NCBI RefSeq assembly: GCF_001870905.1
Contig: NZ_LNDC01000175.1
Location: 1-33,589 of the forward strand
Reading direction: 5' to 3'
Length of the DNA: 33,589 nt
Source of the DNA: Geitlerinema sp. PCC 9228
GTDB lineage: Bacteria; Cyanobacteriota; Cyanobacteriia; Cyanobacteriales; PCC-9228
In this document: positions 126 to 33,589 of the stretch, one piece after another
Layout of the letters: each line of letters opens with the position of its first letter
Numbering within the stretch: the first letter of the stretch is position 1
The notes under the pieces: generated by a model
What the model saw: the letters and a program-made list of their open reading frames with translations, nothing else
Told to the model about the DNA's origin: nothing
The model's database searches: none
Program-made: the position numbers and the translations under genes

Positions 126-1103
126 TTAAATTCCCACCAAGGCATACAGTTTTTCAGCGACAAAAACCGTTGCTTTCTGAGTTACCGGCAGGCTGTCAAC
201 CACCATACCGGCACACAGCAGCATCATATAGAGTATCGAATATTTAAACAGCGATCGCGCCTGTTGTTTGTCCGTGGGTTGTTCTCGCAACGACCAAGCT
301 TTTTTGAGGAAAATACCCCCCAAAGCAACAGCAAAACCAGCATACACCCAACCGGTGGCATGTAACGGATACACCAGCAACAGCGTCGCTGCAATGGTAA
401 TCCAGGTATACCACCAAATTTGCCGGGCTGTGGTTTCGCTACCCGAAATCACTGGTAGCATAGGGACATTCACTGTATGGTATTCGTCGCGAATGAGCAG
501 TGCCAGGGCCCAAAAGTGAGGCGGTGTCCACAGAAACACAATGGCAAACAAGACCCAAGCCGACCAGCTTAACTCTCCGGTAACGGCAGCCCAACCCACC
601 AAGGGAGGAATGGCACCGGCAGCGCCGCCAATGACGATATTTTGGGTGGTGTGGCGTTTCAACCAGTGGGTGTACACCAACACGTAGAATAAGATGCCCG
701 TCATGGCTAAGCTAGCAGCCAGGAAATTGGCGAAAACGCTCAAAAGGGTAAAAGAAGCGATCGCTAAGGTAACGGCAAAAATGATGGCATCTCGGGGATT
801 GACTTTACCGGCAGGCAACGGACGCCACCGGGTGCGTTCCATCTGGTAGTCAATATCGCGGTCGTACAGGCAGTTGATGGTATTGGCTGCCGCCGCTGCG
901 AACCAACCACCCAGCAACGTCACCAGCAACAGCATGGGATCGACTTCACCGGAGGCAGCTACCCACATGCTGCCGGCGGTGGTAATCAACAGCAACAAAA
1001 TAATCCGTGGTTTGGTAAGTTGGTAGTAACTTTTACAGACCTGAAAGATGTTTTGATGGTGTTTTTCGGCGGGAATGGATGGGATAAATTCTTGCATGGA
1101 CAT
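126..1103 (-). CDS. ctaB: Protoheme IX farnesyltransferase (heme O synthase)
   Basis: This integral membrane prenyltransferase converts heme B to heme O with farnesyl diphosphate, the first step to heme A for the cytochrome oxidase encoded opposite. The 325-residue product has the usual family length. It shows the UbiA signature twice: an Asp-rich [15 protein letters not shown] segment near residues 87-101 and a [12 protein letters not shown] loop in the second half. Many hydrophobic segments fit about nine helices. The start ATG is followed by a second ATG two codons later, and no clear Shine-Dalgarno sequence decides between them. It follows ctaA after 40 bp on the same strand, so co-transcription is likely. 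The identity is secure; the exact start is not. Confidence 0.95.
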
Positions 1104-1143
1104 GAATGGCTATGGAATACAAGGAAACAGGACAAGAATGAAG

Positions 1144-2082
1144 TTATTGGGTGGCAGCTACTGGTGCGGTCAAGCGATCGCGGATGCCGTACACGGTAAA
1201 GGCAACCAAAACCCCTAGCAATGCTGCCCCCACGGATTGATGGGCAACGGTGAGAATTTCTACTTGTAAATGCAAGTGCAAGGTGGCAAAACCCAGGGCG
1301 ATTTGAACCAACAGGAGTCCCACGCCCCAGCGGTTGAGCTGTCGCAAGCGGGCGGGTAAATTGGGACTTCGTACCGCCAAAATGCCCAACATCAGCACCG
1401 CAAGACTTGCCGGAAGGACGCCCATGAAATGGCTGTGCAAAACCCCACACAGTTGGGAAATTTGCAAGCACTGATGGGCCGCCCAACGCGATCCCACCAA
1501 AGCTCCCAACAAGCTTTGCAGGTAGACCAGTACGGCTGCGATCGCACTTATCCAGGTTAATCTACGAGGGGTTGCCGTTTCCGTATGTTTTTCATAAGGA
1601 GATAGTAGCAAAGCCATCACCAAAATGGTGCTGAAAAATAGCAAAGCCGTTCCCAAATGAGCGGTAACGATGTCGAAACGCAACATTTCCGTCACTGTCA
1701 GACCGCCGAGCAAACCTTGCAGGGAAATGGCTACCACGGCAGCGGTGGCCATCCACGGTACCCAGCCGGGTAAGTTTTGGCGATGCCACCAACTGCGTCC
1801 TGCCAGCCACAGGGTTCCTACCCCGATAATGGCAGCATCTAGGCGATGGAACCATTCTAGAAACACTTGCAGGTTCATGCGATCGACAGGTAACAGGGTG
1901 CCGTAGCATAAAGGCCAGTCCGGACAAGCCAAACCAGCGTTGGTGACGCGGGTGGCACTGCCAATCGCCATTAAAATAAAGGTCGCGATCGCTAATTTTA
2001 CGGTTAGTTTTTGGATTTTTGCCGATACGGATGCCGTTTTTCCTGAATTGAGGGGCAAGTGATGGGTAACAGCGTCTGTCAT
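1144..2082 (-). CDS. ctaA: Heme A synthase (COX15/CtaA family)
   Basis: CtaA oxidises the C8 methyl of heme O to the formyl group of heme A in the membrane. The 312-residue product has about eight hydrophobic segments. The four expected heme-ligand histidines can be seen: EWFHRLDA (His79), VTAHLGTA, HSHFMG and VAHQSVGA. Two cysteine pairs, LACPDWPLC (Cys53/Cys59) and the QCLQISQLC pair before the third histidine, match the redox cysteine loops of bacterial CtaA proteins. It lies just upstream of ctaB and diverges from coxBAC, a standard cyanobacterial arrangement in which heme A supply and oxidase subunits are linked. No clear ribosome binding site precedes the ATG. Confidence 0.95.
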   Translation of the reverse strand: MTDAVTHHLPLNSGKTASVSAKIQKLTVKLAIATFILMAIGSATRVTNAGLACPDWPLCYGTLLPVDRMNLQVFLEWFHRLDAAIIGVGTLWLAGRSWWHRQNLPGWVPWMATAAVVAISLQGLLGGLTVTEMLRFDIVTAHLGTALLFFSTILVMALLLSPYEKHTETATPRRLTWISAIAAVLVYLQSLLGALVGSRWAAHQCLQISQLCGVLHSHFMGVLPASLAVLMLGILAVRSPNLPARLRQLNRWGVGLLLVQIALGFATLHLHLQVEILTVAHQSVGAALLGVLVAFTVYGIRDRLTAPVAATQ

Positions 2083-2825
2083 AAGCGCAATTTATTCCGT
2101 CGTTGGCGAAACATTCCGAATTTCGCAGCCAGCCAATGCGCGATCGCATTTTTTATTCTGGGCGTGGTCTGTTTTTTCTATATTAATGAATCTAGTTAAT
2201 CCTAGCCACTTTGGTAGCGATTGGAAAAATCTTTAACAGAAACTATAGATGAGTAGCATCGGACAAGGATGGCAATGAAAGCCCCACCTATAAAACCTAG
2301 TACAAGATAACATCCTATCAAACTGTTATCTAAAATACCAAGTAAATCTTTCCTCATATTGTTTTAACAAAATACCAACAAATTTTGCCTACATAATTTC
2401 CGAAAAGCACTAAAAAAGGGACTTCTCGTATAAATCGCTAATTAGTTGTTTTCATCTTGTGTCGCTAGTCAAACAAATATAGGCTACAATTCAGTGGTAC
2501 AATTTTGCACATAAACCATAAAAATTTATGCTTAAATTTGTTTATCGCTTTATGGTTATTTTTAGATTTAAAAACAAAACGTGCCTTTGCCACCCTTGCC
2601 CAATAAAAAATCTAAAGATTGCATTGCAAATAGGTACATTCTAGCAATGCTGTATCAAAATTTTTGTGGGAAAATAAATAGCAGCCAGCAATTAGGACAG
2701 GGCAGGTGGGAGCGTCATTTGGCTGGCCATCGCGCCCAGAACCTTCATCGCATTTGTATGCGGCGATCGGTTTTGTTCCTAAGCAATAACTCAAAGAAGA
2801 GTTTAACAGTTAAAAGAGGTAAAAA
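2083..2825. other. Divergent ctaA/coxB intergenic region
   Basis: This 743-bp AT-rich gap separates two divergent transcription units and must hold both promoters. A TACAAT hexamer at 2485-2490 is a possible -10 box for coxBAC, but no well-spaced -35 accompanies it. A HIP1 octamer lies near 2141. The open frame from about 2581 into the coxB start begins with GTG, has no ribosome binding site and no recognisable domain, so I do not call it. I see no RNA gene. Confidence 0.5.
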
Positions 2826-3803
2826 GTGAATATTCCCAACTCAATCGTCACCCTAATTGCCGGTATTGTCCTAACGTTAATTAGTCTTTGGTACGGACAA
2901 AATCATGGTCTCATGCCCGTAGCGGCGTCAGAAGAAGCCCCCCTGGTGGATAGTTTGTTTAACGCCATGATGACCATTGCCACGGGGTTGTTCATCCTCG
3001 TGCAGGGAATTATTGTTATTGCCATCATCCGATTCCGCCGGCGTCGTGGCGACACCAGCGACGGTCCCCCCATTGACGGCAACTTATCCTTAGAAATCGT
3101 TTGGACCGCCATTCCCACCATCATGGTTTTAGCGATCGCGTTATATAGCTTTGAGATTTACAATGCTATGGGTGGTTTGGACTCAGCAGCCTCTGGTAGC
3201 GGTCGCAACAACCCAGAACTGGCACAAAAACCCGGTAGCGCGATCGCAGCACCCATGCCTAAAGAACGCGACGGAGAAGACCTAGCCGCCGGAGTAGGCG
3301 CTTCTCCCGGCAGAGAAGGATCGGCAGCCGACGTAGTTGTGGATGTCAAAGGCATGCAATACGCCTGGATTTTCACCTATCCCGACTCAGGAATTGTCGC
3401 CGGCGAACTGCACGTTCCCGCTGGCAAAGACATCAAACTCAACATCACCGCCAGCGACGTACTGCACGCCTTCTGGATTCCGCAATTCCGCATCAAACAA
3501 GATGCCATTCCCGGCAGTACCAACCAACTGCGATTCCATCCCCAAAAAATCGGCGACTATCCCATCATTTGCGCCGAACTGTGCGGTGCCTACCACGGCG
3601 TCATGAAAACCCGCATCATCGTCGAATCCCCCGAAGAATTTCAACAGTGGCGGCAAGAACGCATCGCCAGCAGCGAAACCGACAACAACCAACTATCCAT
3701 GCTTGCACCATCTGAAAAAACGCCCTCGGATGCCGAGTATGCTAGCCGTTACGTAGAAGAAAAAATGGGAATCGACCAGCAGGTTCTTCAGCAATTGCAC
3801 TAG
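2826..3803 (+). CDS. coxB: Cytochrome c oxidase subunit II
   Basis: Subunit II accepts electrons from cytochrome c6 or plastocyanin at the binuclear CuA centre and passes them to subunit I. The 325-residue product has two N-terminal membrane helices (about 5-25 and 47-70, plus a second hydrophobic stretch near 93-110). A low-complexity linker rich in Gly, Ala and Ser (about 115-170) follows, then a periplasmic or lumenal cupredoxin domain. CuA ligands are visible: VLHAFW supplies the first His, and CAELCGAYHGVM supplies the two Cys, second His and Met. Translation starts at GTG with AGAGGT about 7 bp upstream. Its stop codon lies 6 bp before the preferred coxA ATG. A long linker between helix 2 and the cupredoxin domain is usual in cyanobacterial CoxB. 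Confidence 0.96.
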   Translation: MNIPNSIVTLIAGIVLTLISLWYGQNHGLMPVAASEEAPLVDSLFNAMMTIATGLFILVQGIIVIAIIRFRRRRGDTSDGPPIDGNLSLEIVWTAIPTIMVLAIALYSFEIYNAMGGLDSAASGSGRNNPELAQKPGSAIAAPMPKERDGEDLAAGVGASPGREGSAADVVVDVKGMQYAWIFTYPDSGIVAGELHVPAGKDIKLNITASDVLHAFWIPQFRIKQDAIPGSTNQLRFHPQKIGDYPIICAELCGAYHGVMKTRIIVESPEEFQQWRQERIASSETDNNQLSMLAPSEKTPSDAEYASRYVEEKMGIDQQVLQQLH

Positions 3804-3809
3804 TTGAAT

Positions 3810-5486
3810 ATGACACAAGCAACCACAACAGCAACCCAATCCATGGCGAACCAAGGGCACCATACCCCTTGGTGGAAATACTTTACCTTCAACACCGACC
3901 ACAAAGTCATCGGCATTCAATACCTGGTGACCACCTTCATCTTCTATTTAATTGGCGGTGTGCTGGCAGGGGGGGTTCGCACCGAACTCGCCACCCCAGA
4001 AGTGGATTTTGTCAGCCGCGAAATTTACAATAGCCTCTTTACCCTGCACGGAACGATTATGATTTTCCTGTGGATCGTTCCCGCAGGCACCGGCGCTTTT
4101 GGCAATTATTTAATTCCCCTAATGATTGGGGCACGGGATATGGCTTTCCCCAGACTCAACGCGATCGCATTTTGGATGATTCCTCCCGGCGGCGCGTTGT
4201 TAATTGGTAGCTTTTTCGTAGAACCGCCGCAAGCAGGTTGGACCTCCTATCCCCCCTTGAGCGAAATTGCCAGCAACTCCGGGCAAATCATGTGGATTCT
4301 CAGCCTGCTAATTTTAGGAACCTCCTCCATTTTGGGGGCTGTGAATTTCCTCACCACCATTTTGAAAATGCGCACCCCGGGGATGACCTTGTACCAGATG
4401 CCACTGTTTTGCTGGTCTATGATTGCGGCTTCCATTTTGATTTTGATTTCTACCCCGGTGCTGGCAGGTGCGTTAATTCTGCTCATGTTCGACATCGTCG
4501 CCGGAACTGCCTTTTTCAATCCCACCGGTGGCGGCGACCCAGTGGTGTACCAGCACATGTTCTGGTTTTATTCCCATCCGGCGGTTTACATTATGATTTT
4601 GCCGGTATTTGGCATCATTTCCGACGTATTGCCAGTTCACGCCCGCAAACCCATTTTTGGTTATACCGCGATCGCTTATTCTAGCCTCGCCATTAGCTTT
4701 TTGGGATTGGTCGTGTGGGCACACCACATGTTCACCAGCGGTACCCCCGGATGGCTGCGGATGTTCTTTATGATTGCCACCATGATTATTGCCGTTCCCA
4801 CCGGCATTAAAATCTTTAGCTGGGTTGCCACCGTCTGGGGCGGTAAAATCGAACTCAACAGCGCCATGCTCTTTAGCTTGGGCTTCGTCTCCATGTTCGT
4901 TATCGGCGGTCTGAGCGGCGTAATGGTGGCATCGGTACCCTTTGACATTCACGTTCACGATACCTACTTCGTGGTTGCCCACATTCACTACGTCTTGTTT
5001 GGTGGCAGCGTCTTCGGATTGTATGCGGGCATCTATCACTGGTTCCCGAAAATGACCGGTCGCAAGCTCAACGAACCCCTGGGCATTACCCACTTTGTCT
5101 TGAACTTTATCGGCTTTAACATGTGCTTTCTGCCCATGCACTGGCTGGGCTTGCAAGGAATGCCCCGCCGGGTAGCCGAGTACGACCCGCAATTTACCTT
5201 TGTCAACCAGATTTGTAGCGTTGGTTCGTTGCTGCTGGCCATTTCCACAGTGCCGTTTTTGATTAATGCCATTTGGAGTTGGATTGGTGGCAAACAAGTG
5301 GGTGCCAATCCCTGGAGAGCTTTGACTTTAGAATGGCAAACCGCTTCGCCACCGCCGGAAGAGAACTTTTTGGAAAATCCAGTATTGTGGTCTGGTCCTT
5401 ACGATTACGGCATTGACAACGTTCACCGCGACAGCGACAAACCGGTGGAAGAGTTGCTATCGGAAGTTCAAGGAAACGCTCGTTAA
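3810..5486 (+). CDS. coxA: Cytochrome c oxidase subunit I, A2-type
   Basis: This is the catalytic heme-copper oxidase subunit, with about twelve helices and 558 residues. Heme a and a3/CuB ligands appear in order: the His of LFTLHGTIMI, the YSHPAVY segment, the CuB pair WAHHMFTSG, and HVHDTYFVVAHIHY. The usual HPEV glutamate of the D-channel is replaced: the sequence reads WFYSHPAVYIM, the YSHP signature that defines the A2 subfamily. I start at ATG 3810. A TTG at 3804 immediately after the coxB stop would add two residues, and neither start has a good Shine-Dalgarno. Its tight spacing to coxB indicates translational coupling. A G/C hairpin separates it from coxC. Confidence 0.96.
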   Translation: MTQATTTATQSMANQGHHTPWWKYFTFNTDHKVIGIQYLVTTFIFYLIGGVLAGGVRTELATPEVDFVSREIYNSLFTLHGTIMIFLWIVPAGTGAFGNYLIPLMIGARDMAFPRLNAIAFWMIPPGGALLIGSFFVEPPQAGWTSYPPLSEIASNSGQIMWILSLLILGTSSILGAVNFLTTILKMRTPGMTLYQMPLFCWSMIAASILILISTPVLAGALILLMFDIVAGTAFFNPTGGGDPVVYQHMFWFYSHPAVYIMILPVFGIISDVLPVHARKPIFGYTAIAYSSLAISFLGLVVWAHHMFTSGTPGWLRMFFMIATMIIAVPTGIKIFSWVATVWGGKIELNSAMLFSLGFVSMFVIGGLSGVMVASVPFDIHVHDTYFVVAHIHYVLFGGSVFGLYAGIYHWFPKMTGRKLNEPLGITHFVLNFIGFNMCFLPMHWLGLQGMPRRVAEYDPQFTFVNQICSVGSLLLAISTVPFLINAIWSWIGGKQVGANPWRALTLEWQTASPPPEENFLENPVLWSGPYDYGIDNVHRDSDKPVEELLSEVQGNAR

Positions 5487-5517
5487 GCTCTACACAAGGT
5501 TGACATAGGGAACCATA

Positions 5518-5539
5518 GGGGGTCTTTTCTTGGACCCCC
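5518..5539. repeat. G/C hairpin between coxA and coxC
   Basis: GGGGGTC (5518-5524) pairs perfectly with GACCCCC (5533-5539) around an 8-nt loop. No T-run follows, so it is not a classical terminator. Its place between two genes of one operon suggests an mRNA processing or stability element that could adjust subunit III expression relative to I and II. The function is inferred. Confidence 0.55.
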
Positions 5540-5575
5540 CACAAAAGAAATTGCAAACGAGGATTGAGAAAGTTT

Positions 5576-6196
5576 ATGCAAGGTTCTGTTAGTTCCAGCG
5601 AAAAAGAAGTACAATATGCGGCAGAAACTGCCGAAACTGGTCATGAGGAACATGGCGACCATCGAATTTTTGGGTTAATCCTGTTTTTGGTGGCAGAGTC
5701 GATGATTTTCCTGGGGTTGTTCGTCGCGTATTTAACATTCAAAGCGGTCAACCCCGAATGGCCGCCCGGTGGTACTCCGGAAATTGACTTGCTGCTGCCG
5801 GGAATCAACACTGTTATTTTGATTTCTAGCAGTTTTGTTATCCATAAAGGCGATACCGCTATCAAACGCCAAAGCAATGTTTCCCAACTGCGGTTGTGGT
5901 TTGGGGTTACTGCTTTGATGGGGATTGTGTTTTTGGGCGGTCAGGTATACGAATATTTCAGCAATGATTTCGGTCTGACGGATAATTTATTTACCAGTAC
6001 ATTTTACGTTTTGACTGGGTTTCACGGTTTGCACGTTTTGTTTGGTTTGTTGTTGATTGGTGGGGTTTTGGTGCGATCGCTAAAATCCGGCCATTACAAT
6101 AGTGAAAGCCATTTTGGGGTAGAAGCCGCTGAAATCTACTGGCATTTCGTAGATGTTATCTGGATTATTCTGTTTATCTTGCTGTATTTGCTTTAG
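5576..6196 (+). CDS. coxC: Cytochrome c oxidase subunit III
   Basis: Subunit III is an all-helical membrane protein that stabilises the oxidase core. The product from ATG 5576 is 206 residues, the short five-helix form found in bacteria. It has a hydrophilic N-terminus rich in Glu and His, then FGLILFLVAESMIFLGLF as the first helix. A conserved FYVLTGFHGLHVLFGL segment and a C-terminal AEIYWHFVDVIWIILF helix follow; both are hallmark subunit III motifs. A TTG at 5564 in the same frame is possible, but GAGGA lies directly against it, while the ATG lies 12 bp downstream of that sequence. It is the last gene of coxBAC. Confidence 0.94.
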   Translation: MQGSVSSSEKEVQYAAETAETGHEEHGDHRIFGLILFLVAESMIFLGLFVAYLTFKAVNPEWPPGGTPEIDLLLPGINTVILISSSFVIHKGDTAIKRQSNVSQLRLWFGVTALMGIVFLGGQVYEYFSNDFGLTDNLFTSTFYVLTGFHGLHVLFGLLLIGGVLVRSLKSGHYNSESHFGVEAAEIYWHFVDVIWIILFILLYLL

Positions 6197-6233
6197 ATTG
6201 AGAAAGGGCAAGTTGGGCAAGCATACCGGGGAA

Positions 6234-6261
6234 GTAGGGGTGGTTCGCGAACTGCCCCTAC
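6234..6261. terminator. Palindrome between convergent coxC and dnaA
   Basis: GTAGGGG (6234-6240) pairs with CCCCTAC (6255-6261), and the interior GTTCGCGAAC (6243-6252) is itself palindromic. It lies in the 79-bp gap between two convergent genes, so it could end transcription from both sides. There is no T-run. Similar GTAGGGG/CCCCTAC palindromes are scattered through many cyanobacterial genomes, so a dispersed repeat is equally likely. Confidence 0.5.
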
Positions 6262-6275
6262 AGGAATGCCGAACT

Positions 6276-7691
6276 CTAACTACCAGGATGCCCCTTAATG
6301 CGATCGCTTAATTGCATAACAGTCTGATTGAGATTGATATCTTTTTTGATTGCTTGGGCAACTTTATCGCAACTATAAATGACCGTAGTATGGTCTTTTC
6401 CGCCAAAAGCATCGCCAATTTTGGGCAAACTTAACTCAGTATGTTGGCGCATCAAATACATCCCCACTTGTCGGGCTTGGCTAATTTCTCGCCGGCGGGA
6501 ATTTCCTTTTAAATCTTCAATAGAAATACCAAAATAATCGGCAACCAACTGCATAATTTTTTCGGGCGAAATATCGATATTTTCCGTAGCTGGTTCTAAA
6601 ACTGGAATGAGATTCTCTACCGTCATGGGCAAGCCGGAAATAGAAATATAAGCCACTGCCCTGGTTAACGCCCCTTCCAACTCCCGAATATTAGACGTAT
6701 AGCGAGAAGCAATATATTCCAAAACTTCCCGGGGCAAACGCACGTTTTCGTATTCAGATTTTTTCTGCAAAATGGCAATGCGCGTTTCCAAATCCGGCGA
6801 CTGAATATCGGCAATCAATCCCATGGAAAATCGCGAACAGAGGCGCTCTTGTAGCCGCGAAATTTGACTGGGGGGACGGTCGGATGCCAAAACCACTTGT
6901 TTGCCGGCTTCGTGGAGCGTATTAAATGTATGAAAAAATTCTTCTTGGGTATATTCTTTGCCTTCGATAAATTGAATATCATCTACCAGTAAAACATCTG
7001 CTGCTCGGTAGTGTTCCCGGAAGGTTTGCATGCTGTCTTGACGAATGGAGGCGATTAAATCGTTGGTAAATTGTTCGGTGGAAACGTAAAAAATTCTCGC
7101 CCCGGGGTCGATTTCCCGGCGATAGTGACCGATGGCTTGCATTAAATGGGTTTTGCCCAATCCCACGCCGCCGCAAAGAAACAAAGGGTTGAATTCGCGC
7201 CCGGGAGACTCTGCCACCGCCAGTGCCGCCGCATGAGCCATGCGATTGTTGGCACCGACGACGAAGCGGGAAAAGACATATTTGGGATTTAATTCGGTGG
7301 GTTGGTGTCTGCCTTGCGGTTTATCGAATCCCCTGCCCTGAACCTTGTCGAACAGTGATGGTGGTGGTGATATATCGGAAACGTTGGGATTGTTGGAGGT
7401 GGCGGCGACTTGCCGCTGCATTTCTAGGTCGATGGCTTCTCCGTCGGCAGTGGTGAAATAAATTTTTACAGAATAGCCCAAGATTTCTCGCACTGCATCT
7501 TGGATGGTGTGCAGGTAGTGTTTTTGCAGCCAGGTTTGGGCAAATGGATTGGGAGCACGAACCACCAGGCAATTGCCTTCAAATCGTTCGGCGGTGGTGG
7601 TTTGGATCCAGGTTTCAAAGGTAGGGCGGCTGAGTTGTTGTTGCAGGTGTTCCAGAACCTTTTCCCACAGCGTTCCTAAGGAGATATCCAC
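6276..7691 (-). CDS. dnaA: Chromosomal replication initiator DnaA
   Basis: DnaA binds DnaA boxes and opens the replication origin. Domain I ([21 protein letters not shown]) is followed by a Gln/Pro-rich linker and the AAA+ domain. Walker A is GGVGLGKTH and Walker B is VLLVDDIQF, with a sensor region near LASDRPP. The C-terminal DNA-binding domain includes the signature [16 protein letters not shown] prefer the GTG at 7691: AGGGGGG sits about 6 bp upstream and the protein then begins [12 protein letters not shown] as in other DnaA proteins (471 residues). A TTG at 7709 would add six residues. No dnaN is adjacent, and I see no cluster of DnaA boxes in the flanks, so this locus need not be the origin. 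Confidence 0.96.
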
Positions 7692-7843
7692 GATTTTCCC
7701 CCCTGCCAACGACTGGCACGCAAAACTAGGATTATCAGTTTAATCAATTGTGGCAGACAATGACCACATGAGCAGGGAAGTAGCGATCGCGAATTTGGTC
7801 TCGATGGTTACGATCGGAAATCGCCCATTGCTAGTGCGCCTAC

Positions 7844-7849
7844 TATAAT
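7844..7849 (+). promoter_or_regulatory. Candidate -10 box for htrA
   Basis: A perfect TATAAT lies 50 bp before the htrA ATG. No good -35 hexamer is found 16-18 bp upstream, so it would be an activator-dependent or -10-only promoter. A HIP1 octamer lies between it and the gene. Confidence 0.4.
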
Positions 7850-7899
7850 GGCTATGGTGGGTAGGTATAGCGATCGCATTCTCGCATTAGGAATTTGCT

Positions 7900-9162
7900 A
7901 TGAGTTCTTCATTTGCTGAAAAACCAACCAACCCAACGCCCCACCCCCAAACCAAATGGTGGCGTTGGCGAAATGCTTTCATCCTGATTCTGGCGGGAAT
8001 CGGGTCGGTATCCTGCGCTCAAAGTTCTATTTCCCCCCAAGCGGAGTCGCAAACGCAACAGAACCAACCAACACAACAACCAACAACTGAAGCTTCTCCG
8101 AATTCACAAAAAGCTGATGTTAGAAACACGCCGCCGCTACCAAGTTCGGACAATCGCAATTTTATCGTCAATGCGGTAAACAGTGTGGGCAAAGCAGTGG
8201 TTCGCATTGATGCCACCCGCACTGTAACGCCGGATTTGCCAGAATTTTTCCAAGACCCCTTCTTTCGACGCTTTTTTGGCGAAAACTTACCCACTCCCAA
8301 ACGCAAAGAAGAAGGCACAGGTTCCGGCTTTCTCATCAATCGCGATGGTTACCTACTCACCAACGCTCACGTAGTTAGAAATGCTACCGATGTAAGCGTC
8401 ACCCTCAAGGATGGTCGTACCCTCAGTGGCAAAGTTGTGGGTGCCGATTCCGTTACTGATGTGGCAGTGGTTAAGGTAGATGGCGAAAATCTGCCTTCGG
8501 TGCAACTGGGCAATTCCGACGACATTCAACCCGGTCAGTGGGCGATCGCGATCGGCAATCCTTTAGGATTGGATAATACCGTTACTGTGGGCATTATCAG
8601 CGCCACGGGTCGTTCTAGCAGTGAAGTAGGTGTTCCCGACAAGCGGGTTGGTTTCATCCAAACCGATGCTGCCATTAACCCCGGCAATTCTGGCGGACCT
8701 CTCATCAACGGCGCTGGCGAGGTTATCGGCATGAACACGGCGATTATTCGCGGTGCACAAGGGTTGGGATTTGCCATTCCCATCAATACGGTCAAGCAAA
8801 TTGCCGACGAACTGATTGCCACTGGCGAAGTCCAGCATCCTTTCATTGGTATTCGCATGATAACCATTGACGAAGAAATCCGCCAGCGGATTAACAGCGA
8901 CCCCAACAGTCCTATTGAGGTCAATGTTAGCGAAGGGGTGCTGATTTTGGAAGTGGTTCCCAATTCGCCAGCGGCACAAGCGGGATTGCAGCCGGGGGAT
9001 ATTATTCAACAAATGGAAGGTCAAGCTATTGAAGGTGCGGAAAAAGTCCAGCAAATCGTCCAAAATACGGAAATTGGCGCTGATTTGTCTGTAGAAGTGC
9101 TGCGCGATGGTGAAACGGTCAACCTGACCTTACAGCCAGCACCTTTGCCGAGTCAAGAGTAG
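7900..9162 (+). CDS. HtrA/Deg-family serine protease with one PDZ domain
   Basis: This envelope protease handles misfolded proteins. The N-terminus has a positive and Trp-rich stretch, then a hydrophobic helix (about 25-38) ending in SVSCAQ. That is either a weak lipobox (Cys39) or a signal anchor. A Gln/Pro-rich linker leads to a trypsin-like domain with triad His157 (TNAHVV), Asp187 (VTDVAVV) and Ser264 (NPGNSGGP). A single C-terminal PDZ domain (about 310-410) contains VVPNSPAAQAGLQPGDII. One PDZ domain and 420 residues match the cyanobacterial HtrA/HhoA/HhoB group; which paralogue cannot be decided here. It stands alone between convergent-free neighbours with its own promoter region. Confidence 0.92.
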   Translation: MSSSFAEKPTNPTPHPQTKWWRWRNAFILILAGIGSVSCAQSSISPQAESQTQQNQPTQQPTTEASPNSQKADVRNTPPLPSSDNRNFIVNAVNSVGKAVVRIDATRTVTPDLPEFFQDPFFRRFFGENLPTPKRKEEGTGSGFLINRDGYLLTNAHVVRNATDVSVTLKDGRTLSGKVVGADSVTDVAVVKVDGENLPSVQLGNSDDIQPGQWAIAIGNPLGLDNTVTVGIISATGRSSSEVGVPDKRVGFIQTDAAINPGNSGGPLINGAGEVIGMNTAIIRGAQGLGFAIPINTVKQIADELIATGEVQHPFIGIRMITIDEEIRQRINSDPNSPIEVNVSEGVLILEVVPNSPAAQAGLQPGDIIQQMEGQAIEGAEKVQQIVQNTEIGADLSVEVLRDGETVNLTLQPAPLPSQE

Positions 9163-31265: not shown

Positions 31266-31400
31266 TTTTTGGGGTTAAGAGTTGCAAACGGTATACGGAG
31301 CATGGGAGTTGACTGCTAGAAGAACAATTACTGTACATCAATTGACATTACTTAACTTCCAAGCTAGATTCTCATGTGTCAATTAAATTGTTTTTTTTTA

Positions 31401-32046
31401 AATGCCGAAGTATGTGCCAGCCAGAGTCGCCCAAGAAAAACTCGGCGTTTCACTCCGAACCCTTCTCCGATGAGATGAAGCTGGGAAAATCGAAACCATC
31501 CGAACCCAAACGGGCAAAGACGTTACAACGTCGAATCAATCCTCAACCCTTCTCCATCAGAGAAAGCAATTCTCCTCTACGCCAGAGTTAGCAGTCATGC
31601 TCAAAAACCTGACCTGGAGAGACAGGCTGACTTTCTTCTCGCTCGTTTCCCCAACGGTGAACTCGTCAAAGAAATCGCGTCGGGTCTCAACTTCAAAAGA
31701 AAAAAACTTCGTGACCTATTGGAACGAGTTCTCGCAGGAGATGTTTCAATGGTTGTGGTCTGTCATAAAGATCGACTCGCCCGTTTCGGCGTTGAACTTA
31801 TCCAATGGGTCTGCGAAAGACAAGGTTGTCAACTCGTGGTTCTCCAGCAAAGTGACCTTATCTCCAGAACGAGAGATGGTTGAAGATATCCTTGCCATCA
31901 TCCACGTCTTCAGTTGTCGATTATACGGACTCCGAAAGTACAAAAAACTGATTCGTGAAGACTTGCACCCAGTATCGAATGGTACTGAACCAAGAACAAC
32001 GCCATCTTCTAAAAAAGTGGGTCAGACTGAATCGGAAAGCATATAA
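31401..32046 (+). pseudogene. IS607-family serine recombinase (tnpA) pseudogene
   Basis: Translated across three frames this is an IS607-type TnpA. Segment 1 reads MPKYVPARVAQEKLGVSLR (MerR-like helix-turn-helix) and then hits a TGA where Trp is expected (codon 24, TGG to TGA). Segment 2, after a frameshift near 31513, reads RYNVESILNPSPSEKAILLY, then ARVSSHAQKPDLERQADFLL with the catalytic-region Ser, and HKDRLARFGVELIQWV. Segment 3, after another frameshift near 31873, reads REMVEDILAIIHVFSCRLYG and LRKYKKLIRED, the IS607 C-terminus. One nonsense mutation and two frameshifts make it inactive. It overlaps the start of the tnpB-like frame, as intact IS607 elements do. Confidence 0.85.
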
Positions 32047-33517
32047 CCTGGCTATAGAGTACTTAAACCAACATCAGGGCTTTGACCGAACAGGAATTGG
32101 AGGGACTGGAAAGCAAGCCTTCAAGACTTTTTTTAAGGCTCAAATCAGACCAGACTGGTTAAAAAAGGAACTTCCTGCCGCCATCTTAGATCGAGCGGTG
32201 ATGGGTGCTTACTCCGCATGGTCTAAAACCAAGAAGAATCCCAAATATGTGGGGAAAGGTAAGCAAAAACAGCCTCATCCCCAAGCTGGATTAAAAATAG
32301 CAAGATTTCGTTCCATCCGAGACAAATCCCAAACTCTTCAATTTAAGGTAGCATCTGACCTAAAACAAGGGAAACTGCTTCCCCAATACTGGGGAAATTT
32401 AGGAGCATTTGAATGTTCTGATAACGGAACACGCTTTTGCGTTATTCATCCAGACTACACGCCAGAAGTCACTTACAAAAATGGTAATTTCTATCTTTCT
32501 CTTCCTCAAGATACAGAAGTAAAAGACAACGAGAAGGAAAGTTTCATTGCGTTTGACCCTGGTGTGCGAACTTTCCTAACAGGATTTGATGGTAATCGGT
32601 TTATCGAGTTTGGAGAAAGCGATATAAATCGCATTGTAAGATTGTGCCGTTCTTTGGACAAAATGCAAAGTCAACGAAACTTATTGAAAGGACATAAAAA
32701 TCGCCCCGCAGGGGTAGATAAGGAGGTACTAAACACCCCAGACGAGCGAGTGAAACTTGTGAACAGTTGGGAAATGCCCAAAGCTAACCCAACACGGCGA
32801 GTTTACCTCCCCAAATCTAACGGGAAGAAACGTCCCCTCGGAATCCCTACCGTACGGGATAGAGTCGCACAAGCAATGGTTAAGAATATACTAGAACCCG
32901 AATGGGAAGCCGTATTTGAGCCTAATTCCTACGGGTTTAGATGCGGAAGAAGCTGTCACGATGCCATCGCGCAATGCTTCCTGAGAGTGCAAGGAGGACG
33001 AGACAGTTGGGTTCTGGACGCTGACATTAAGGGTTTCTTCGACAACATTGCCCATGAATCCATTCTGACAGCGATCGAATCTATACCACATGGAGATTTA
33101 ATGGAAGGATGGTTAAAAGCTGGTTATCTCGATCGAGGCATACTGAATCCGACCGACATGGGAACACCACAAGGTGGAGTGATTAGTCCTCTGTTAGCAA
33201 ACATTGGGTTACATGGGTTGGAAGATTTCATCAAGTCAATCAACCCAAAGCTCGGAGTTATTCGCTATGCGGATGATTTCGTGGTCACTTCTAAGGATAA
33301 AGAAAGCCTAGAACATATATTAGACCAGATAAAGCAGTGGATGTCAGAACGAGGTCTGGAAATCAGTGCGGAGAAGACGAGAATCATCTCAATGGAAGAA
33401 GGTTTTGACTTTCTTGGGTTCAACTTACGTCACTACGGTGGCCAATTGTTAATCAAGCCCCAGAAAAAGAAGGTACTTGCCTTCTGTAAAAAGAGAAGAA
33501 AGCAGTTTACGGCGTGA
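31955..33517 (+). CDS. In-frame chimera: TnpB N-terminal half + group II intron-type reverse transcriptase
   Basis: Residues 1-250 are the TnpB start: YRMVLNQEQRHLLKKWVRLN, AWSKTKKNPKYVGKGK and the first RuvC motif IAFDPGVRTFLTGFDG (Asp201), breaking off after LLKGHKNR. The TnpB Glu and second Asp motifs and the zinc finger are absent. From residue 251 (PAGVDKEVLNTPDE) it is a reverse transcriptase of group II intron type: RRVYLPKSNGKKRPLGIP, EPNSYGFRCGRSCHDAI, DADIKGFFDNI, GTPQGGVISPLLANI, and YADD at 438-441. It ends after the RT7 motif FDFLGFNLR and LIKPQKKK, so the maturase (X) and endonuclease domains are missing. GTG start; 520 residues without a stop. The IS-end repeat follows within 4 bp. 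It may be a decayed recombination product or a real fusion. Confidence 0.85.
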   Translation: MKTCTQYRMVLNQEQRHLLKKWVRLNRKAYNLAIEYLNQHQGFDRTGIGGTGKQAFKTFFKAQIRPDWLKKELPAAILDRAVMGAYSAWSKTKKNPKYVGKGKQKQPHPQAGLKIARFRSIRDKSQTLQFKVASDLKQGKLLPQYWGNLGAFECSDNGTRFCVIHPDYTPEVTYKNGNFYLSLPQDTEVKDNEKESFIAFDPGVRTFLTGFDGNRFIEFGESDINRIVRLCRSLDKMQSQRNLLKGHKNRPAGVDKEVLNTPDERVKLVNSWEMPKANPTRRVYLPKSNGKKRPLGIPTVRDRVAQAMVKNILEPEWEAVFEPNSYGFRCGRSCHDAIAQCFLRVQGGRDSWVLDADIKGFFDNIAHESILTAIESIPHGDLMEGWLKAGYLDRGILNPTDMGTPQGGVISPLLANIGLHGLEDFIKSINPKLGVIRYADDFVVTSKDKESLEHILDQIKQWMSERGLEISAEKTRIISMEEGFDFLGFNLRHYGGQLLIKPQKKKVLAFCKKRRKQFTA

Positions 33518-33520
33518 ATC

Positions 33521-33589
33521 GGGAGCTTGAAAGCCCTGACCTTTTAAAGCAGGGATGAAAAGCGACCCGTGCGGCTTTAGCCGCCGTCA
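33521..33589 (+). repeat. IS-right-end-like repeat, copy D, cut by window end
   Basis: GGGAGCTTGAAAGCCCTG, a CTTTTAAAG segment, CAGGGATGAAAAGCGACCCG and a GCGGC-TTTA-GCCGC hairpin match the first part of copy C almost base for base. The position right after the tnpB-like frame identifies the family as tnpB 3'-end sequence, where the right end and the guide RNA scaffold of such elements lie. The second half would be outside the window. Confidence 0.7.

What the first reader, a model, noticed from the sequence alone, without database searches (positions are those of the whole stretch)
31955..33517. Open frame fusing half of TnpB to a group II intron-type reverse transcriptase
The sequence shows one uninterrupted frame of 520 codons. 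Residues 1-250 are TnpB up to just past the first RuvC motif, and 251-505 are an RT with intact YADD. The join (HKNR then PAGVDKE) falls exactly where the RT0/RT1 region of cyanobacterial group II intron proteins begins, and there is no intron RNA sequence between the parts. After the RT the tnpB-type right end resumes within 4 bp of the stop, as if the RT had replaced the TnpB C-terminal half inside the element. A random junction would keep frame one time in three, and the long stop-free RT suggests that it is recent or under selection. A TnpB RNA-binding half joined to an RT, next to a possible guide-RNA scaffold, would be a novel architecture.
Basis: partly seen in the sequence, partly recalled or inferred. 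Interest (0 to 1): 0.8.

Follow-up and report, generated by a model that had tools for sequence, protein, structure and literature searches.

The report
Jumping-gene scar fusing TnpB and RT
In a cyanobacterium, a piece of one mobile element's reverse-transcriptase gene has replaced a piece of another mobile element's nuclease gene without breaking the reading frame, and a third mobile element has since cut the gene in two; it is a curious natural chimera but most likely a dead relic rather than a new machine.

Summary
The open frame is real (31955-33517, 520 codons). It is a three-layer stack of mobile DNA. (1) An IS607-type element, 92% identical in DNA to copies in a relative (G039), with a broken tnpA. 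(2) In its tnpB, 333 bp (including the codon taken as RuvC-II glutamate and the first zinc CxxC) are replaced by 789 bp from inside a group II intron reverse-transcriptase ORF; both joins are blunt and in frame. (3) After the RT, tnpB resumes for 16 bp and is then cut at TTTAC by a high-copy IS200/IS605-type element, whose end supplies the stop codon. The other side of the insertion is, by sequence, on contig C74, where tnpB continues at the very next base, still in frame; the frame was 553 codons before the insertion. No collection searched showed the join elsewhere; relatives found are separate TnpBs or separate intron RTs. The product lacks TnpB's RuvC-II residue and the RT's N-terminal, maturase/thumb and endonuclease parts. 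Best reading: illegitimate recombination between two mobile elements, now a pseudogene. A working TnpB-RT protein is unlikely (about 4%). An assembly artefact needs reads to exclude.

The parts
31305..31954 (+). Left part of an IS607-type element with a broken serine-recombinase tnpA (31402 on, overlapping the start of tnpB): one TGG-to-TGA, one 1-bp deletion, one 1-bp insertion
   Evidence: 92.2% identical over 31305-32705 to L136; intact tnpA of L136 is Pfam Resolvase + MerR; alignment with three inactivating differences
31955..32705 (+). tnpB, codons 1-250 plus one base: N-terminal part and RuvC-I (FDPGVRTF at residue 200)
   Evidence: 94.8% and 92.4% aa identity to L136 and L137; NCBIfam guided_TnpB; positions
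32706..33494 (+). 789 bp (263 codons' length) of a group II intron RT ORF, about residues 79-340 of a 581-aa protein: whole RVT_1 core, without most of the N-terminal domain, the maturase/thumb domain (GIIM) and HNH
   Evidence: 88-90% DNA identity to 7 of 8 G039/G011 intron loci, 85% to a partial one; join sequences; domain map of the intact parent; tree places it beside L138/L140
33495..33510 (+). tnpB resumes in frame (codons RKQFT of the zinc ribbon), ending at the insertion target TTTAC
   Evidence: 15 of 16 bases equal to L136 2789-2804; the 12 bases before TTAC match at 11 of 12; of 7,788 TTAC sites scanned in other loci only 2 do as well, both in loci that hold the window itself
33511..33589 (+). 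Left end of a high-copy IS200/IS605-type element inserted 3' of TTTAC; supplies the stop codon; continues past the contig end. Inferred right flank: contig C74 (right end ...GTGTCAA, then tnpB tail TTGTCC...)

Best explanation
A natural scar of nested mobile elements. An IS607-type tnpA-tnpB element lost 333 bp of tnpB and gained 789 bp from the middle of a group II intron RT gene by illegitimate (homology-free) recombination. Either this was one event of fragment capture at a break, or an intron first inserted in sense into tnpB and two deletions then trimmed it. By chance, or under weak selection, both joins kept the frame, giving a 553-codon TnpB-RT-TnpB frame. Later an IS200/IS605-type element, perhaps a roughly 240-bp gene-less copy, inserted 3' of TTTAC in the tnpB tail and ended the frame. 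Shown: the boundaries, the frames, the parents' relatives, the insertion site. Inferred: the order of the events, the recombination route, that the product is inactive as nuclease and as RT, and that contigs C175 and C74 are the two sides of one insertion.
For: Both parents exist apart in a relative: tnpB at 92% DNA identity (L136, L137) and the RT at 88-90%. Joins are blunt, and the lengths 789 and 333 are both multiples of three. tnpB continues on C74 at the base after TTTAC, following an IS right end in TCAA; the empty site reads in frame to a tnpB stop, 553 codons. Left and right ends lie together in 3 whole copies of about 240 bp. The window's RT lacks most of RVT_N (17-97), GIIM (336-412, all but about 5 residues) and HNH (496-541) of the 581-aa parent; TnpB residues 252-361, with E295 and C350xxC353, are gone. 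The ISDra2 TnpB E278A variant is called catalytically dead (PMC8612924, passages). tnpA carries 3 inactivating mutations. No spanning relative: only the own genome among 388 by pattern and among 388 by protein; 0 of the 5000 plasmid records kept and 0 of 99 matched phage records cover 80% of the query. Plasmid rows whose match overruns the join are ordinary genes: H1 is a whole TnpB (75% over 410 of 410 residues), H14 and H19 are intron RTs without TnpB.
Against: The frame survives both joins (1 in 9 by chance) and has no stop in 1557 bp, while tnpA next to it has 3 inactivating mutations in about 550 bp; if such mutations fell evenly, all three landing in tnpA has a chance of about 0.02 (my arithmetic). 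That hints at retention, but the frame was picked because it is open, and tnpB may have been selected before the join. dN/dS is low in both halves. The C175-C74 link could not be confirmed by gene order: in none of 24 loci of relatives was the window's hli gene (49 aa, easily missed) or four other window frames found within 1.5 kb of the nucleotidase gene.
Confidence: 0.8

Rival explanations
1. Assembly or library chimera: the joins do not exist in the organism.
For: Draft assembly of 223 contigs; the window ends in a high-copy repeat; no other genome searched has the joins; no reads available.
Against: Neither parent has another close copy in the assembly (4 other protein matches, at most 54% identical; the only other DNA match is a 69% piece of tnpA), so there is little to misjoin. 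No base is shared at either join with the parents compared. The RT is flanked by tnpB on both sides in frame, which would take two precise false joins.
Confidence: 0.08
2. A working chimeric protein: a TnpB RNA-binding half carrying an RT, selected to act on RNA or to prime DNA synthesis at RNA-bound sites.
For: Frame kept across both joins; RT core and YADD intact; low dN/dS in both halves; no stop in 1557 bp beside a broken tnpA.
Against: RT lacks its N-terminal part, maturase/thumb and endonuclease; TnpB lacks the RuvC-II residue and half of the zinc ribbon; no homologue of the join found; an IS now separates the frame from the tnpB tail and right end. dN/dS is in the range between parents (0.085-0.144 for 10 intron pairs, 0.089 for the two tnpBs), so it may report only history before the join.
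Confidence: 0.04
3. Variant within the best explanation (its 0.35 is part of the 0.8): a group II intron inserted in sense into tnpB, then two separate deletions trimmed both flanks, leaving only the RT core.
For: Same orientation as tnpB; an intron of this family sits in sense 6 bp after the stop of another tnpB (48% identical over residues 194-390) in G024 (L029); introns of this family are multi-copy in G039.
Against: Needs three events with two homology-free in-frame deletions; no intron RNA was found on either side; one capture event would do. Only 1 tnpB-intron pair was seen among the 126 of 170 loci scanned that hold this RT type (L029 and L168 are the same place).
Confidence: 0.35

Closest known systems
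IS607-family element (serine recombinase tnpA + tnpB), copies L136/L137 in G039
   Same: Same tnpA-tnpB arrangement; 92% DNA identity over 1.4 kb; the two G039 copies share 1.9 kb at 95% with different flanks
   Different: tnpA broken; a 333-bp tnpB stretch replaced by RT; tail cut off by an IS
Group II intron reverse transcriptase/maturase, solved relative 6me0 ('Maturase reverse transcriptase')
   Same: RT core 88-90% identical in DNA to introns of G039/G011; residues 249-515 align to 81-350 of the 562-aa solved chain
   Different: Only residues ~79-340 of 581; no intron RNA found, no GIIM, no HNH, no RVT_N match
IS200/IS605-type element (left flank TTAC and right end TCAA as in IS608)
   Same: Insertion 3' of TTAC, right end in TCAA, no duplication of the target (IS608 from PMC5934647, passages)
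   Different: Whole copies seen are ~240 bp and too short for a transposase gene; which kind sits here is unknown because the contig ends
IStrons (group I intron joined to an IS)
   Same: An intron-type part and an IS in one unit (PMC4227781, start of abstract in listing)
   Different: Here only a protein-coding scrap of a group II intron; no ribozyme found, no recurring unit
RT-Cas1 fusions (6-RT-Cas1 chain 7kft appears)
   Same: A group II-like RT joined to a nuclease-type protein
   Different: Those are a recurring family (recalled); here one genome only

Membership tests
IS607 family | Serine-recombinase TnpA with MerR-type domain, overlapping tnpB | tested here: met
   Intact in the 92% relative (Pfam Resolvase 64.9 bits, MerR 35.6); in the window the gene is broken
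Active TnpB RNA-guided nuclease | RuvC residues D, E, D | tested here: not met
   D201 kept; E295 lies in the lost 252-361; D378 lies beyond the IS on C74. Residue roles follow from recalled motifs, the alignment range to ISDra2 TnpB (200-389 on 190-372) and D191/E278 in PMC8612924 (passages)
Active TnpB RNA-guided nuclease | Right-end RNA joined to tnpB | tested here: not met
   tnpB's own right end is separated by the IS; no Rfam RNA in the window, but Rfam also found none in the intact L136, so that part says little
Group II intron | Intron RNA with domain V | tested here: not met
   0 Rfam matches in the window; found in L138, L139, L141, L142, L144 and L029
Group II intron RT/maturase | RVT_N, RVT_1, GIIM (and HNH) | tested here: not met
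   Only RVT_1 in P0001; all four in L138. NCBIfam group_II_RT_mat 294.2 bits, under its 300 cut-off
IS200/IS605-type element (33511 on) | Left flank TTAC, right end TCAA, no duplication | tested here: met
   TTAC in 19 of 19 left-end copies inspected and in 2 of 3 whole copies, the third CTAC; exact GAGTGTCAA in 19 of 20 right-end loci, L214 not
IS200/IS605-type element (33511 on) | Y1 transposase that moves it | tested here: inconclusive
   8 Y1_Tnp match rows in the genome (two in one frame on C46, one with stops); none linked to this repeat
Natural RT-nuclease fusion family (as RT-Cas1) | Fusion conserved in more than one lineage | tested here: not met
   Own genome only, 1 of 388 by pattern, and no other spanning hit in 388 by protein; none in what searches list; overrunning plasmid rows checked and ordinary
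Natural RT-nuclease fusion family | Reverse transcriptase activity | not testable with these tools
   needs bench work

The most novel reading that the evidence does not exclude
Before the IS insertion, a 553-residue TnpB-RT-TnpB protein in which an RT core replaced the RuvC-II region was made and bound the element's right-end RNA, so that an RNA-binding scaffold carried a reverse transcriptase; the truncated 520-codon frame might still be made.
Probability: 0.04. Interest if true: 0.85.

Novelty: new member of a known kind. Interest (0 to 1): 0.25.

Why it matters
It shows at base level how mobile elements can swap enzyme parts in frame without homology, a raw step by which fusions such as RT-Cas proteins might begin. 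It also warns that a repeat end beside an ORF can be mistaken for its own guide-RNA scaffold. As a working system it would be a natural RNA-guided reverse transcriptase, but the evidence speaks for a relic.

Tried and rejected
Rejected: 'right end of the tnpB element resumes after the RT'. The end repeat abuts TTAC in 19 of 19 copies inspected, and tnpB itself continues on C74.

Rejected: a 5'-truncated group II intron retrotransposition. That would keep the intron's 3' end (recalled rule), and none was found.

Tried without result: gene-order test of the C175-C74 link (25 loci examined, own included, no match of any of 5 window frames). dN/dS as a test of selection after the join: it cannot separate before from after. 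Join patterns in viral contigs (0 exact matches each) and a protein scan there (12 stretches, none a relative). A structure prediction was not run: the TnpB half had too few permitted rows for an alignment. Literature: no paper holds a TnpB-RT compound term (0 papers); the 8, 7 and 3 papers were seen as listings with the start of abstracts, two of the last also as passages.

Limits: one search scored 40 of 106 candidates and one search scored 40 of 88, so copy numbers are lower bounds. One search cut its list of matches (E at most 1e-20, at most 25 scored per genome). One search stopped at 5000 records and listed 20. each drew 388 genomes evenly from a larger group, and these overlap; one search listed matches at E at most 1e-45, at most 8 scored per genome. 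In one search, 10 of 15 possible pairs of the 6 introns chosen were compared (those with L140 fell out on length). The tree has 12 of 23 inner branches open.

Full report
What is there. The frame 31955-33517 is open for 520 codons. Its first part is TnpB-like and its second part a group II intron RT, each just under the curated NCBIfam cut-off or well under it. The window is the whole of contig C175 of a 4.8-Mb draft genome of 223 contigs whose relatives are cyanobacteria, and the frame lies at its very end.

Parents. In the closest useful relative (G039, one contig) both parts occur apart. An IS607-type element (L136, L137) matches window 31305-32705 at 92.2% and 91.6% DNA identity. Group II introns of G039 and G011 match the RT part, from 32698, 32706 or 32720 to 33492 or 33494, at 88.3-90.2% in seven of eight loci (L138-L142, L144, L145); the eighth (L143) matches 32859-33494 at 85.3%. 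Two of these seven are copies with identical RT protein (L139, L145). The tree of 27 RT rows puts the window's RT beside L138/L140 with support 95/98. Neither parent has another close copy in the window's own genome; pieces of the IS607 element remain on C66, C140 and C26, besides C74.

Boundaries. tnpB runs to 32705 and the RT begins at 32706. The RT ends at 33494 and tnpB resumes at 33495 with GAAGAAAGCAGTTTAC, where L136 has GAAGAAAACAGTTTAC. No base is shared at either join with the parents compared. The inserted length is 789 bp (263 codons) and the missing tnpB length is 333 bp (111 codons), with a hybrid codon at each edge, so the frame is kept through both joins. The resumption rests on 11 of 12 bases before TTAC. 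Of 7,788 TTAC sites scanned in other loci two did as well, and both lie in loci that hold the window itself (L146, L164); the parents L136 and L169, left out of that count, match as well. L137 does not, because it has TTTAT there.

The third layer. From 33511 the sequence is a repeat end with at least 39 other copies. The 19 best were inspected: all 19 abut TTAC and have different DNA before it. The matching right end is at contig C74: 82 bp ending in GTGTCAA, then TTGTCCTAACTGTGG, which is tnpB from the base after TTTAC, 96% identical to L136 over 158 bases. 19 of 20 right-end loci hold exact GAGTGTCAA, with differing flanks. Three whole copies of about 240 bp carry both ends; two follow TTAC, one CTAC. 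IS608 inserts 3' of TTAC and has TCAA at its right end (PMC5934647, passages; TTAC also in PMC8612924, passages). So an IS200/IS605-type element interrupted the chimeric gene; the stop codon TGA belongs to it. Joining the two flanks gives a frame of 553 codons that ends in the tnpB tail with CPNCG and RDFVGA. The pairing of C175 and C74 rests on tnpB sequence alone; a gene-order test gave nothing.

What is lost. The intact RT parent has RVT_N 17-97, RVT_1 113-318, GIIM 336-412 and HNH 496-541; the window keeps about residues 79-340. In the intact TnpB the likely RuvC residues are D201, E295 and D378 (motifs recalled; positions; range of alignment to ISDra2 TnpB); the middle one is in the lost part, and the ISDra2 variants D191A and E278A are called catalytically dead (PMC8612924, passages). 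That an RT of this kind needs its thumb is recalled knowledge. tnpA in the window has a nonsense change, a 1-bp deletion and a 1-bp insertion.

Selection. Pairwise dN/dS is 0.086 and 0.111 for the TnpB part, and 0.061-0.139 for the RT part against the eight close intron loci. Between the parents it is 0.089 (L136/L137 tnpB) and 0.085-0.144 (10 intron pairs). The window shows no relaxation, which fits a recent join as well as selection. The frame's survival (1 in 9 for two joins) and its lack of stops beside a broken tnpA are weak hints of retention, made weaker because the frame was chosen for being open.

Is it shared? Not in what was searched. A 36-base pattern over the first join with up to 3 mismatches is found in 1 of 388 genomes of the order, the own one. 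Residues 150-350 give no other spanning match in 388 genomes of the class (15 matches in 5 genomes, all listed). No spanning match is in the listed rows for 60 relatives or among the best 80 loci of the species-wide scan. 0 of 5000 plasmid records kept and 0 of 99 matched phage records cover 80% of the query; by DNA, 0 of 22 matched plasmid records do. Viral contigs gave nothing. Some plasmid rows run past the join on paper: H1 and H2 (residues 1-309), H14 and H15 (169-507), H19 (163-510). Three were checked: H1 is a whole ordinary TnpB (75% identical to L136 over 410 of 410 residues), and H14 and H19 are ordinary intron RTs with no TnpB match, so these are alignment overruns; H2 and H15, of the same genera and coordinates, were not fetched. 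The library searched holds no paper with a TnpB-RT compound term, and searches list none on such a fusion by title.

Route. A single capture of an RT fragment at a break, or an intron insertion trimmed by two deletions, would both give this sequence. An intron of this family sits in sense 6 bp after the stop of another tnpB in G024, so such nesting does happen.

Verdict. A real (reads pending) and unusual in-frame chimera of two mobile-element genes, interrupted by a third element, most likely non-functional.

Noticed in passing
G024:C89, locus L029 (reverse strand, tnpB to 697, intron from 704): A group II intron of the same family sits in sense 6 bp after the stop codon of a tnpB that is 48% identical to the L136 one: an intron nested beside a TnpB gene.
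   Followed up: partly
window 33511-33589; G000 C110:13078-13318, C100:48716-48954, C11:18902-19142: A repeat with IS608-like ends, each end seen at least 40 times, sits at many contig ends and so probably broke the assembly; three whole copies are ~240 bp. The genome has 8 Y1-transposase match rows, none linked to it.
   Followed up: partly
contig C74 (L174) 83 on: The bases next to the right end of the IS here are tnpB sequence, so if the IS were of a TnpB-bearing kind its guide would match the intact site (TTTAC TTGTCC...) in the related IS607 element L136.
   Followed up: no
L149 1500-2866 (G008): A similar left end precedes a tnpB gene, with what looks by eye like a small antitoxin-like ORF on the opposite strand between them: a possible full-length relative of the short repeat.
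   Followed up: no
window 129-9159: UbiA, CtaA, COX2, COX1, DnaA and a trypsin/PDZ protease lie together, a housekeeping neighbourhood far from the mobile DNA at the contig end.
   Followed up: no
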